Origin: Microcoleus vaginatus HSN003
Lineage (GTDB): Bacteria > Cyanobacteriota > Cyanobacteriia > Cyanobacteriales > Microcoleaceae
Assembly (NCBI RefSeq): GCF_022701255.1
Contig: NZ_CP031705.1
Span: 5,022,001 to 5,086,000 of the forward strand
DNA length: 64,000 bases
Direction of reading: 5' to 3'
Part shown: in pieces, positions 45,890 through 58,707 of the stretch
Layout of the letters: every line of letters begins with the position of its first letter
How positions within the stretch are numbered: the stretch's first letter is position 1
Made by a program: the position numbers and the translations under genes
The notes under the pieces: generated by a model
The model's input: the letters and a program-made list of their open reading frames with translations, nothing else
The model's database searches: none
Told to the model about the DNA's origin: nothing

Positions 45890-46338
45890 CTACAAACCAG
45901 GTAGCCCGATTAGTGTGAAATCCTGTTGAGTGATGAGATTAGCTGATACGCCGTTGAGGCTAGCTAAGATTTGATCTGTGTTGGCAATTTTGATAAAAGT
46001 TGTAGTGTTTTCTTCAACTATGCTGAGTCGATCGACCGTTAACCCTCCCGTCAAGATTAATAAATCTTCACCTTGCATACAATCAGCGATTACATCGCGG
46101 CCTTCTCCCGCAGTCAAGAAAAAGTAATCGCGCCCGCTTCCTCCTTGCAGCGTATCGTTTCCTAAATCTCCCATCAACCAGTCGTCGCCCATTCCCCGAA
46201 TCAAAGTATCATCACCCTTACCCCCGTACAGAGTATCGCTACCGTCACCGCCCCACAATTGATCGGCATCTTCATTACCAAAAATTAAATCATTGCCACT
46301 ACCGCCGCACAAATAATCTTTTTGACTGCTAGCATCCG
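45890..46338 (-). pseudogene. Interrupted cadherin-like/RTX gene, 3' segment
   Basis: This is the C terminus of the broken RTX protein. RTX nonapeptides (GGSGNDLIFGNEDADQLWGG, GGKGDDTLIRGMGDDWL) and the capping region YFFLTAGEGRDVIADC follow, ending FTLIGLPGL. The segment starts in mid-frame at the ISAs1 insertion. Read across the insertion it joins the segment at 48912 in frame (IATDA then SSQKDYLCGG). The last ten bases (46329-46338, CTAGCATCCG) are the left copy of the target duplication. Confidence 0.88.
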
Positions 46339-47821
46339 CAGGGTAAACGCATCTAATTTAATTTGACAAAAAGGTGAATTTGTGCATTACTAAATAACTA
46401 AAAAAACCTTCTTAAAATCCTTAATTTTAACCCGACCTGAGCAGATAAAATCAGAACCTTAAGATTTTCTGAACTTCTTAAACCCGGATAATTTTTCTTT
46501 TTAGATAGGTATTAGATTTCGATCATTAACTGGCAGAGTTTAAAATTTTAACTAAATAATTATTGTCCATTGCCGCTCGATACCGTTTCATTTTTAGACT
46601 TTGTTTAGAAGTTTTTTCTTGTTTTAGTAAATTTATAGCACTCGCGACGTAGGAGAGCAAAATTTTCGGGAGAATGATCTTTGCGAATGCGACTCTTGTC
46701 TTCACAAAATGTAACATCGAGTGTCCAATGTAAGCTATTTTCAATGCCCCAATGACTGCGAATCGCCCCAGCAATTTTTTCAGCATTACTGCTTAAACTA
46801 CTCAAGTAAAAACGAGCTTCAGTCGTGGTTTTATTCCACAGCCGTCGTTCACTAACTATCATGACAACTGTTTTTAATCCAGTCCATAATGCTTGATTAT
46901 GGAGAGGTGGTAACTCAGATACATCAACAGTCCATACCTGTCTTTTTTCCACTCGGTGATGTCCAGCTTCTACTTGTTCATGATAGTTATACTCTCTATC
47001 TATATAATCTGATTTTTGGGCTAATTCAAACCATTCTTTTACGGCTTTATACAGGAGTGGTTGATTTCCTTTTAAAGCTACAATATAATCTCCTTTTTTC
47101 TTGATAATCAGAGATGTTATGTCTTTTTGACATCCCATAGCATCGATGGTTATTACACTTCCGGCAATTTCTAACATTTCTATTAATTCCGGAATTGCTG
47201 TGAGTTCGTTAGATTTTTGAGGGACTTTTTTTTGCCCTAAAACCAATTGATGAGATGAAGACCAGGCAGTAACTATATGTAGTGCTTTTTGCTGGTCATT
47301 TCGGTCATAAGATTGTTTCATTGTTTTGCCATCAATGGCAATCACGTTTAGTTCTAATTCCCCGACTATCGCATTTACCCAACTCAAAAAACATTCTTGA
47401 AACTGCTGCGGTTCAATTCGGGCAAATACTCGACTAAATGTGTCATGAGATGGTATACCATTCGGTAATTCTAGAAAGGTTTTTAACCATTCATATTTGG
47501 CGTTACCATAGGCTTCTATTGCCACCCATCCGTCTGCACCGCGTCTGGATACCTAGAATTGCAATCGATCTAATATCTTTGAGTAAGTGTTCTTTACTTC
47601 TTTCTATTCTTGGGTTGTTCAACTTGGCAAAATGTTCTCAAAAACTGGCATTTAAAATATTCATTGAACGCAATGAATCTGTTTGTTTTTGTTGGGAATT
47701 TACAGCTTTACTAAAACCTCTTGCCATTGATAGCACTCATAAACTACAACAAACTACATTGAATTTTAGTCGTATTTAACTGTAGCATATTTTGGGTTAA
47801 AGTTAAGGTGCGTTTACCCTG
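46339..47821 (-). mobile_element. ISAs1-family insertion sequence (defective)
   Basis: The ends are inverted copies: CAGGGTAAACGCATCT at 46339 and its complement AGGTGCGTTTACCCTG ending 47821. The target duplication is CTAGCATCCG, 10 bases: intact at left (46329-46338), and at right split by the next element (c at 47822 plus TA, then gcatccg at 48912). Length is 1483 bases. It carries one decayed transposase gene on the minus strand. Confidence 0.92.
46526..47727 (-). pseudogene. ISAs1-family transposase, frameshifted
   Basis: The N-terminal piece MARGFSKAVNSQQKQTDSLR ends at a TGA after 30 codons. NNPRIERSKEHLLKDI appears further on in frame, then a shift leads into the long main piece: VIAIDGKTMKQSYDR, ITIDAMGCQKDI, RSHWGIENSLHWTLDVTFCEDKSRIR. 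A second shift near 46640 moves the C terminus (INLLKQEKTSKQSLKMKRYR) to another frame. The DDE residues sit in the main piece. At least three disruptions make it inactive. Confidence 0.9.
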
Positions 47822-47824
47822 CTA

Positions 47825-48909
47825 AGTAGCTAGACAAAATTAATTACATAGTTTTCTCCAAATTCTTTCAGGATTTTTTCCACAGATGTTACAAAAGTTC
47901 CCCAACTCTTGTAAGCAGATATCTCAATCCATTCATACTTAATAAACCGCCATTTAATTTCAATTAAATTTAATTCATGAGAGTAAGAAGGCAACTCAAA
48001 AAGAGTAATATTACGTTGTTTCCACTCTTCAAGTTTGTCAACAATAGCATCACTGGTATGAATAGAAGCTTGATCTGTGACAATTACCGTTGGCTTATGT
48101 ACTGCGGGTAAAAAAGCATCAATACAGGCACTAACTACATCTGAATTAATACCTTGAGATGAAATATAAGTTTCAAGATGGTTATTTCGATTCATGATTC
48201 CTAGTACATTCATTCGCTGACTACGACGACTAGGAATTGTTAAATATTCTCCGATATCTTGCCAGCCATAGGGGACACAGGGAATCATACAAAATCCCGT
48301 TTCATCCAAGTAATATAAATCAATCTTACCCTCATCATCCAATTGTTTTAATTCTTCTAATTGCGCCTTTTTATCTTGATATTCTTGGGCTGGAGGCTTT
48401 CCGGCAACTCCTTTACGCATACGATGCCAACTCATCTTCAGCATTTTTAGTATTCTTTGAATTGTTTTTATACTCGGACTTATCCCCCAGGCTTCTTGAA
48501 CTTTTGGGCTAACCTTTTTTAATTGCCTTGGTTCTTGTTTGGCCCAGTCTTTGATTTGGGCTTTCTGCGAAGAGTTAAAGAGTGCCTTAGCACCTCTTCC
48601 TGGTTTATTATAAAGTCCTATCATTCCCTCTAATTCCCACCGATTGAACCCGTTGTAGAGTGTCTTATAACTTATTCTAAAAATATTCATTAACTCTCCT
48701 TTTTTTACTCCTTGCGAAGCTAATATGAGGCAATGTGCTCTCTGACGTACCTGATGATGTCGGCTTTGGCGATGAATTCGAGTCGAGCAATTTAGACGAA
48801 AGAGGATTTATTTCCCTGATAAACAGCATATGAAATTCTAATTAACTCATAATTTTGCCGGGAATATCATTCTACTATGTATTTGTGTAATTAATTCTGT
48901 CTAACTACT
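47825..48909 (-). mobile_element. IS630-family element a, inserted in the ISAs1 target duplication
   Basis: The terminal repeats are AGTAGCTAGACAAAATTAAT at 47825 and the complement of AGTAGTTAGACAGAATTAAT ending 48909. It is flanked by TA on both sides (47823-47824 and 48910-48911), the IS630 target duplication. Its TA is part of the ISAs1 target duplication, so it arrived after ISAs1. Confidence 0.92.
47830..48690 (-). pseudogene. IS630-family transposase of element a (start apparently lost)
   Basis: The 286-residue frame from ATG 48690 holds the DDE domain: DLYYLDETGFCMIPCVPYGW (first Asp), VIVTDQASIHTS (second Asp) and SHELNLIEIKWRFIKYEW (Glu). Homologous N-terminal residues continue in frame upstream (RQRAHCLILASQGVKKGEL) to about 48805 but no ATG, GTG or TTG precedes them before a stop. 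The HTH domain is therefore cut short and the gene is probably inactive, although a rare start cannot be excluded. Confidence 0.75.
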
Positions 48910-56796: not shown

Positions 56797-57946
56797 TAAG
56801 TTCAGCTCAATTTAAACTGATTGGAATCTTGCTACCCTTGATACAATCAGAAAAACAAGTGAGATTAGAACGGCTCTCCCGGGTATTTCCCTATCCAATT
56901 ACAACCGAAAGTCGGCGCAGAAAACTACAAATATTTCTGGATTTACCAAATTTAACTATCTCATTAATTTGGTTCCCATTAATTACTTATTGGTTGACCA
57001 CTTATTGCCCCATTGGTACTCGTTTATCAAGATCAATCGACCGCAGTCAATGGGGGCGCATTAATCTCTTTATGGTTAGCCTGATCTGGGAGCGAAGAGC
57101 AATTCCATTATACTGGTCACTCTTGCCCAAATTGGGAAACAGTAGCTTCGAGTCACAGACTACCAATTTACAGCAAGTTTTACCATTATTTTCAGAATAT
57201 AAAGTCATCGTTTTAGGAGACCGTGAATTTTGTTCTGTTGATTTGGGAAACTGGCTAAGGGAAAAGGGTGTATCTTTTTGTTTAAGACTGAAAAAGAATC
57301 ATTGTATCGAAACGGAACATTTAGTTTGGCAACGGTTAGATGAATTAGGAATAGTACCAGGAACCTCTTTATATTGTCAGGGAAAAAGAGTGAGGAAAAC
57401 TCGACCTGCGACCGGATTTGATATTGCTTGTAAGTGGAAAAGGAACTACGGGGGATGGAAGGTGGATGAAGCATGGTTTATTCTCACAGATTTAGGCTCA
57501 TTACCAGCAGCCATCAATGCTTATAAGCAGCGGATGGGTATTGAAGAAATGTTCCGAGACTGTAAAACAGGAGGCTACGATCTTGAAGGAACTAGCTTAA
57601 AAGGAGACCGACTTATTAACATGATTTTGCTCATGACGCTCGCCTACAGTTCGGGAATATTTCAAGGCACTTAAATGAGAAAAAAACAGGTTCACGAATA
57701 TGTATCTCGCCGCAAAGAACCTAAAAAAAAATATCGAAGACGGAGTACATTTGGTGTTGGTTTAGATGGAGAAAAGTGGGTCAATTATCTAGAACAATAT
57801 TCTGACGAGGTAGAACAGTTAATGAAGTTAGCTCCAAATAAACGCCGCTTTTATCAACAAGGTATGCGGACTGCAACCCTTATACAGTCTATCTCGTAGA
57901 CCTTTTTGTCACCCCCCCAGTCAGACCGGAATCCTTACTTAAAAAG

Positions 57947-58601
57947 TAAATTAAAAATTCCCCGACCTCGCAGTATTTCTCAGAAATCTACGGCAATTAA
58001 TAAATTCAAAAATAACTTGCATCAACAGATAAAAGCTCTACTAGACCAAGCTTTACCTCAAGTAAACAAATATAAAAAAGTCATCTTTTGGTGCAGTGAT
58101 GAAACGCGGCTAGGACTGCATACAATTCGTCGGCGTAAGCTGACGCTTTCAGGCGTAAAGCCCGTCGGGAAGCATCAATGGAAATTTGAGTGTTTTTGGC
58201 TGTATGGGGCAGTAGCGAGCGCTACTGGAAAAAGTTTTTTTTGGGAGTTTTCCCATTTAGACAAAGTTTGTTTTGGAGCATATTTACAACTTTTGTCAAT
58301 ACAATATCCTGAGCAATTACACATCATTCAAGTTGATAACGCACCAGCTCATAAGTTGGACTCATCTGAATTACCAGACAATGTTATTTTACTATTTCAG
58401 CCTCCGGCTTGTCCGGAAGTAAATCCGACAGAAAGAGTGTGGGAATATCTGAAATATTTTTTAGCTTGGTCGGTGTTTAGTAATCTTGACGAACTCCGCA
58501 TAAAAGTCCAGGAAATTTTGGCATCTTTCACCGAGCGTGTCATTGGTTTTCTCACCGGATGGTCTTGGATCTTACATTCTCTATCTCTATCACATCTTTA
58601 A
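57947..58601 (+). pseudogene. IS630 c transposase, C-terminal part
   Basis: It continues the N-terminal piece from 53376: SKLKIPRPRSISQKSTAINK, then the DDE domain with WCSDETRLGLHTI (Asp), IIQVDNAPAHKLDSS (Asp) and PPACPEVNPTERVWEYLKYF (Glu), ending SLSLSHL. The frame is open back into the IS4/IS66 end (from TTG 57906), but that is fortuitous. Confidence 0.9.
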
Positions 58602-58707
58602 AAAAATGGTATAATGTCTATCTCGTCTTCTTGTCAAGGGGGTTGAGCAATTACAATCGACTCAACATTTAACACTCAACCATTCAGTTTTTCGACCCGC
58701 CCGTCAA

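What the first reader, a model, noticed from the sequence alone, without database searches (positions are those of the whole stretch)
45890..58613. Four-level nest of insertion sequences with a readable insertion order
Terminal repeats and target duplications can be read for every element. RTX gene ← IS630 c (TA) ← IS66 (TTAAAAAG) ← IS4 (TCAGACC) ← IS630 d (TA), with IS1 b (AAATAAAC) also inside IS66. Removing each insert restores the frame of the layer below: GQL-KSKLKI in the IS630 c transposase, KNQL-SSAQF in the IS4 transposase. Almost every transposase is decayed. The order is therefore a small stratigraphy of element arrival, and the locus has acted as a safe landing site after the RTX gene died.
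Basis: seen in the sequence. Interest (0 to 1): 0.75.

Follow-up and report, generated by a model that had tools for sequence, protein, structure and literature searches.

The report
Insertion-sequence nest on a deletion scar
A stack of jumping genes really is nested as described in this cyanobacterial chromosome, but its base does not sit inside one broken gene: it lies where about 11,000 bases, including a potassium-pump operon that most related genomes keep, have been lost.

Summary
The upper nest is real. All four joins above the base (IS66 in IS630c, IS1b in IS66, IS4 in IS66, IS630d in IS4) match uninterrupted sister copies in the same 6.76-Mb genome, and both quoted reading frames rejoin.

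The base is wrong. Left of IS630c is an RTX-repeat gene. Right of it, starting exactly at the "duplicated" TA, are 44 bp of the end of a second IS66-type element. The two TAs belong to two different targets. In relatives G003 and G014 the RTX gene runs on, followed by a kdp potassium-pump operon and then the antiporter gene now at 59693. The own genome shows only fragments of that interval and no KdpA; 26 of 28 other genus genomes have one. So the nest sits on an ~11-kb deletion, most likely made through IS630c.

The RTX remnant is itself a fusion of two tandem genes. Frame breaks in IS1b and IS630d are shared with sister copies, so they are not decay after landing. Other IS-in-IS nests exist in this genome. 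Each piece is a known kind; the mild interest lies in the gene loss.

The parts
45890..46338 (-). 3' (C-terminal) piece of RTX-repeat gene A; its last 10 bases, CTAGCATCCG, are the target copy of the ISAs1-like insert
   Evidence: PF00353; 45683-46338 is 92% to gene A of G028; empty site read in G028
46339..47821 (-). ISAs1-like element, 10-bp target duplication; the transposase ORF covers only part of the associated N-terminal domain
   Evidence: DDE_Tnp_1 and DDE_Tnp_1_assoc, positions 40-88 of 88; borders; empty site in G028
47825..48909 (-). IS630e, inserted at the TA inside the right copy of the ISAs1 target duplication (TA at 47823-47824 and 48910-48911)
   Evidence: DDE_3; terminal repeats; direct reading
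48912..50557 (-). RTX piece: gene A repeats, then a Pro/Thr-rich repeat tract, passing into gene B sequence near its right end (A/B fusion)
   Evidence: PF00353; 84% to gene A vs 69% to gene B overall, but 50400-50557 matches gene B contiguously at 90-91%
50558..52593 (+). IS1a, target duplication AAAGAGTC (50550-50557, 52594-52601), interrupted by IS630f
   Evidence: terminal repeats; Zn_ribbon_InsA, below Pfam's cut-off; empty site in G028 gene B; uninterrupted sisters at 3005266 and 5747579
51060..52236 (-). IS630f at TA inside IS1a; about 100% identical to many copies in the genome
   Evidence: DDE_3; 15 other full-length copies at about 100%
52594..52905 (-). cadherin-like/Ig-like piece of RTX-repeat gene B; ends at the TA where IS630c begins
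   Evidence: 97% to G028 gene B; Big_9 and Cadherin_4; relatives continue past this TA
52906..58611 (+). IS630c (host of the nest): 52906-53376 plus 57947-58611
   Evidence: DDE_3; 93% uninterrupted sister 1408068-1409205
53377..57938 (+). IS66 in IS630c, TTAAAAAG x2; pieces 53377-53428, 54251-55694, 57929-57938
   Evidence: DDE_Tnp_IS66; four intact sisters at 91%, one translated with a 484-aa frame
53429..54242 (+). IS1b in IS66, AAATAAAC x2
   Evidence: DDE_Tnp_IS1 and InsA zinc ribbon; sisters at 231321 (99.9%) and 1791532 (99.8%)
55695..57920 (+). IS4-type element in IS66, TCAGACCT (55687-55694) / TCAGACCG (57921-57928)
   Evidence: DDE_Tnp_1; three of four intact IS66 sisters read TCAGACCTGAATCC
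55848..56796 (-). IS630d in the IS4-type element, TA x2
   Evidence: DDE_3; sisters at 5992660, 1777295, 6112020 (99.4-99.7%) and 1731853 (95.3%)
58612..58655 (.). 44-bp terminal remnant of a second IS66-type element (IS66-B), starting at the right TA of IS630c; hidden older layer
   Evidence: 100% to the ends of two full copies at about 563 kb and 5.992 Mb
58652..58751 (.). interspersed repeat; 14 other places in the own genome listed at 91-97%, one at 77%
   Evidence: listed matches; 15 of 284 first-look candidates scored in the own genome
58755..59530 (-). group II intron remnant; Rfam domain at 58755-58831, the 5' end near 59530 is inferred
   Evidence: RF00029, 60 bits; 92-93% relatives in G016 and G005
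59541..61015 (+). right edge of the deletion: upstream region and gene of the cation/proton antiporter (59693-61015) that lies beside kdp in relatives; gene name by recall
   Evidence: 92% to G028 and G014, which carry kdp next to it

Best explanation
This is a genuine IS-in-IS nest whose base, IS630c, sits on the scar of a large deletion. The ancestor had two tandem RTX-repeat genes (A, B), a kdp potassium-pump operon with a sensor kinase and a response regulator, then an antiporter gene. One deletion fused A to B across their repeat tracts (shown by comparison). A second removed about 11 kb, including the 5' part of gene B and kdp, and left one IS630c joining a TA in gene B to a TA in the end of an IS66-type element (loss and flanks shown). 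I think it arose by recombination between two IS630c copies, one at each TA (inferred, about 0.48); a one-ended event of a single copy is the main alternative (about 0.30). The confidence given is for the scar by either route. IS66 entered IS630c, IS4 and IS1b entered IS66, and IS630d entered IS4 (shown), before or after the deletion (order unknown).
For: Left flank = gene B up to a TA present in G028, G003 and G014, where gene B runs on past it. Right flank starts at TA inside the end of IS66-B, 100% over 45 bp to the G026 copy and to two full own copies in which that TA is uninterrupted. The gene-B 5' region of G028 finds only fragments of at most about 240 bp at 65-83% in the own genome (40 of 49 first-look candidates scored); the 9.3-kb kdp interval of G028 finds nothing longer than 255 bp (40 of 254 scored). 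KdpA: 0 in G000 (1 contig, completeness 99.97; its 1 candidate was scored), 26 of 28 other genus genomes have it. The kdp block lies between RTX and antiporter in G003 and G014. Upper joins validated against sisters.
Against: Only one other full IS630c copy at 90% or more is known in the genome, so two-copy recombination is not seen directly. The two parts of IS630c either side of IS66 are equally far from the sister (93.42 and 93.37%): no mosaic signal. That sister has an extra A/T between TA and its ends, so end use varies. The 9.3-kb and gene-B searches scored capped candidate lists. G010 and G025 also show no KdpA, so absence is not unique to this genome.
Confidence: 0.78

Rival explanations
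1. One reading: IS630c inserted into the RTX gene with a TA duplication, and the rest accumulated on the dead gene.
For: TA on both sides; left flank is RTX gene B.
Against: The right flank is 44 bp of an IS66-type end, then an interspersed repeat and a group II intron, not gene B. The gene B remainder was found in the own genome only as weak fragments.
Confidence: 0.06
2. One-ended or adjacent deletion by the IS630c transposase, without a second IS630c copy: IS630c sat in the IS66-B end and joined its left end to a TA in gene B, deleting what lay between (or the mirror image). This is the second route to the same scar and is included in the 0.78 of the best explanation.
For: Both flanks are TA targets; gives exactly the observed structure; needs only one copy.
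Against: Such events are better known (recalled) for replicative elements than for cut-and-paste IS630.
Confidence: 0.3
3. The deletion came first by another route and IS630c later inserted at a TA that happened to lie on the junction.
For: TA is present at both parental sites, so a 2-bp microhomology junction is possible.
Against: Requires IS630c to hit exactly the junction dinucleotide.
Confidence: 0.08
4. Assembly artefact: repeated elements misjoined two loci.
For: The locus is full of repeated elements, including about 100%-identical IS630f copies.
Against: One-contig genome, completeness 99.97, no KdpA anywhere in it, so kdp is not merely moved. IS630c and IS66 carry their own substitutions against their sisters.
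Confidence: 0.05

Closest known systems
Nested insertion sequences in IS-rich bacterial genomes
   Same: IS inside IS with intact target duplications; relative order readable. At least five other interrupted or nested IS places in this same genome.
   Different: Depth: four elements in a direct line from IS630c to IS630d, plus a side branch (IS1b).
Transposon-associated gene-cluster deletion in cyanobacteria (Christiansen et al. 2008; only its title seen, in a reference list; that it concerns Planktothrix is recalled)
   Same: Gene loss in a cyanobacterium attributed to a transposable element (from the title).
   Different: Here the lost block is a kdp operon and part of an RTX-repeat gene, and the scar element was itself entered by other elements.
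kdp copy-number differences between cyanobacterial strains (Synechocystis PCC 6714 vs 6803, PMC4060947, passages read)
   Same: kdp operon number varies between close relatives.
   Different: There two copies against one; here none of a system that 26 of 28 other genus genomes have, with a visible scar.

Membership tests
IS630 (IS630c, d) | DDE_3 transposase | tested here: met
   PF13358 in 57906-58601 and 55965-56384
IS630 (IS630c, d) | TA target duplicated from one target | tested here: inconclusive
   Met for IS630d (the IS4 sister aligns with a single TA and no gap). For IS630c the two TAs come from different targets
IS66 | DDE_Tnp_IS66 transposase, 8-bp duplication | tested here: met
   TTAAAAAG x2; 8-bp duplications at all four intact sisters
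IS66 | accessory tnpA/tnpB genes of canonical IS66 (recalled) | tested here: not met
   1.5-kb element; the intact sister translated has one 484-aa frame filling it. Single-ORF IS66-type elements are known (recalled)
IS4-type (DDE_Tnp_1) | DDE_Tnp_1 transposase and duplications of about 8-10 bp | tested here: met
   PF01609; window 8 bp with one mismatch; 10 of 12 other full-length copies show 7-10 bp, 2 none
IS4-type (DDE_Tnp_1) | ISfinder family and group assignment | not testable with these tools
   ISfinder not available
IS1 | InsA zinc ribbon plus DDE_Tnp_IS1 in two frames; duplication of about 8 bp | tested here: met
   IS1b: PF03811 and PF03400, AAATAAAC x2, two frames in the window and in the one sister translated. 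IS1a: PF03811 below cut-off only. The IS1b copy at 1791532 shows no duplication
Simple insertion of IS630c into the RTX gene | RTX sequence on both sides | tested here: not met
IS-mediated deletion scar | IS at the join, interval present in relatives and absent here | tested here: met
IS-mediated deletion scar | parental state with the IS at one or both edges before the deletion | not testable with these tools
   one genome per species is held; no second strain of this species

The most novel reading that the evidence does not exclude
The locus is an IS-driven erosion front rather than a passive landing pad. Successive deletions fused the RTX pair, then removed the genus-typical Kdp potassium pump with its regulators through IS630c, and Kdp loss was tolerated or favoured in this lineage (for example in a potassium-rich niche), with the nest recording the steps.
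Probability: 0.15. Interest if true: 0.45.

Novelty: new member of a known kind. Interest (0 to 1): 0.3.

Why it matters
It shows how a "stratigraphy" read from one sequence can miss its most important event: the base element looked like a clean insertion because both flanks end in TA, yet it joins two targets and hides the loss of about 11 kb including kdp. The sister-copy and two-target tests used here apply to any IS with a 2-bp target. For this strain it predicts no Kdp-type high-affinity potassium uptake.

Tried and rejected
Synteny of the named GTDB loci around the antiporter (80 loci searched, hits printed for L039-L061 only): apart from repeat-tract hits at 65-67% in L052, no RTX match was printed within the 10-kb flanks, because kdp lies between; the answer came from the genome search and whole regions instead. 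A mosaic test on IS630c: both sides of the IS66 join are equally distant from the sister, uninformative. Reading the 45-bp right flank as galT-adjacent host DNA from G026 (galT named by recall): rejected once two full own copies showed that it is the end of an IS66-type element.

Literature, in the held open library only: 'nested insertion sequences' + 'cyanobacteri' + 'transposase' gave 0 papers. The other nested-IS search found 18 papers, 15 listed (titles and abstract starts seen), none recognised as about this locus. 'kdp operon' + 'cyanobacteri' + 'potassium' found 26, 12 listed, of which passages of PMC4060947 were read. 'Microcoleus' + 'insertion sequences' + 'genome' found 13, 12 listed, of which passages of PMC8546630 were read. 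No claim is made beyond these searches.
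Full report
What was checked. The window is G000:C1:5022001-5086000 of a one-contig, 6.76-Mb genome. Twenty-eight other genomes of the same genus are held. That the genus is Microcoleus-like is an inference from these lengths.

The upper nest is real. Borders were read directly and tested against uninterrupted sisters in the same genome. IS630c has one full sister (1408068-1409205): with IS66 and one TTAAAAAG removed, the two align end to end with 75 substitutions in 1135 positions and no indel at the join. 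IS66 has four intact sisters at 91% with 8-bp duplications of their own; the one translated has a 484-aa open frame. IS1b and IS4 come out of IS66 without an indel at either join. The IS4-type element has a close relative (5175928-5178351, 98-99.9%, itself interrupted elsewhere) with no IS630d: positions 2-783 align to it without a gap when a single TA is kept. The IS4 duplication is 8 bp, not 7: three of the four intact IS66 sisters were read as TCAGACCTGAATCC (in the fourth the pattern matched another site), and the right copy in the window has changed its last base. Of 12 other full-length IS4 copies, ten show a repeat of 7-10 bp and two show none.

How old are the layers? Identity to the nearest sister is IS630c 93.4%, IS66 91.4%, IS4 98-99.9% (90.3% to an intact copy), IS1b 99.9%, IS630d 99.7%. 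This agrees with the nesting order in broad terms, but it measures distance to whichever copy survives, not insertion time. IS1b and IS4 cannot be ordered against each other. Decay is not purely local: the one other IS1b translated has the same frame break, and the third copy is 99.8% identical without gaps to the window copy; all four IS630d sisters share the same C-terminal stop, two of the four also share the split into two frames, and a third has one long frame. The IS66 copy here, by contrast, has indels against its intact sister.

The base is not what it seemed. Left of IS630c the sequence is RTX-repeat gene B, 97% to G028 and ending at a TA; in G028, G003 and G014 gene B runs on past that TA. 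Right of IS630c, from the TA onwards, 44 bp are identical to the end of a second IS66-type element of about 1.44 kb, present in full at about 563 kb and 5.992 Mb, where the same TA is uninterrupted. Then come an interspersed repeat and a group II intron; the two occur together at another place in G016, with other neighbours. Homology to relatives resumes at 59541, upstream of an antiporter gene. The two TAs of IS630c therefore belong to two different targets.

What is missing. In G003 and G014 the order is ppx, RTX, kdp block, antiporter, with about 11.2 and 11.6 kb between the gene-B TA and the point where homology to the window resumes. In G028 the same kdp block lies beside the antiporter, but the ppx-RTX segment is inverted relative to the window. 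The block encodes KdpA, KdpB, KdpC, a KdpD-type sensor with a Usp domain, a histidine kinase and a LuxR-type response regulator (the name KdpB is recalled, its Pfam hits being E1-E2 ATPase and hydrolase; ppx is likewise a recalled name). Searched with the 9.3-kb stretch of G028, the own genome gives 45 matches, none longer than 255 bp, that one lying beyond the regulator gene (40 of 254 first-look candidates scored). The gene-B part upstream of the TA gives only fragments of 46 to about 240 bp at 65-83% (40 of 49 scored). KdpA (PF03814) is found in 26 of 29 genus genomes searched; the three without are G000 itself, G010 (84% complete) and G025 (94%). In G026 only a short stretch matched (79 aa of open frame), and in G005 only two partial stretches; both count among the 26.

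The RTX remnant is a fusion. G028 and G003 have two tandem RTX-repeat genes; in G014 one long RTX frame, of the B type, was seen next to ppx (the frames of G003 were inferred from its alignment to G028). In the window 45890-46338 and most of 48912-50480 are nearest to gene A (92% and 84% to G028), while 50400-50557 and 52594-52905 are nearest to gene B (90% and 97% to G028). The gene A 5' half and the A-B spacer of G028 match the own genome only in short pieces of one 130-bp stretch (40 of 156 candidates scored). The exact fusion point lies in the repeat tract and cannot be fixed. The three pieces scanned match RTX calcium-binding repeats and cadherin-like or Ig-like domains and no other family. 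Pieces of this gene were not joined.

Is this place special? All nine elements and the IS66-B end lie between 46339 and 58655; a scan of the whole window with these ten sequences found no other copy. Elements unlike these ten would not have been found by that scan. Other nests or interruptions in the genome include an IS630f-like copy holding an IS4-type copy that is itself split (3.911-3.917 Mb), IS630f in IS630f (2.876 Mb), IS630e in IS1a (1.384 Mb), an interrupted IS630e (1.786-1.790 Mb) and IS4 in IS4 (0.216-0.222 Mb). Nesting is therefore usual here. Published Microcoleus genomes hold 1 to 3.6% IS DNA (PMC8546630, passages read).

Mechanism. Shown: the two-target flanks, the loss, and the insertions into IS630c. 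Inferred: the deletion arose by recombination between two IS630c copies (about 0.48) or by a one-ended transposition event (about 0.30). I favour recombination because both TAs are uninterrupted in other copies and relatives, as ordinary IS630 targets would be, but the evidence does not separate the two routes. When the deletion happened relative to IS66, IS4 and IS630d cannot be told.

Verdict. A correct and careful reading of the upper nest, a wrong base layer, and an unnoticed loss of the kdp operon. Known kinds of element and known kinds of event; interest 0.3.

Noticed in passing
window 51060-52236: IS630f has 15 other full-length copies at about 100% identity in the genome: a very recent burst. 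Its left end in the window holds an imperfect doubling of the terminal repeat (about 51047-51104).
   Followed up: partly
L189:6635-15334 (G028): kdp operon with kinase and regulator, next to the antiporter in relatives, absent from the window genome; also no KdpA in G025 and G010, which are less complete.
   Followed up: partly
L190:779-10197 (G028), L192 (G003): Two tandem RTX-repeat genes with long Pro/Thr-type repeat tracts; fused in the window genome, and one B-type frame beside ppx in G014.
   Followed up: partly
window 14571-34512 vs G028: The ppx-RTX segment is inverted in G028 relative to the window, with a breakpoint near window 33.1 kb.
   Followed up: no
window 58755-59530: Group II intron remnant lying within an interspersed hairpin-like repeat (CCGGAATTGATAT...); the same unit occurs elsewhere in G016.
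   Followed up: partly
G000:C1:1790000-1794000 (L197): IS1b between two overlapping pieces of an IS66-like element (its positions 267-646 and 478-775) without target duplication, suggesting a rearrangement.
   Followed up: no
window 53493-54235 and sisters: IS1b copies are 99.8-99.9% identical without gaps and the two translated share the same frame break; either translational frameshifting or movement in trans.
   Followed up: no
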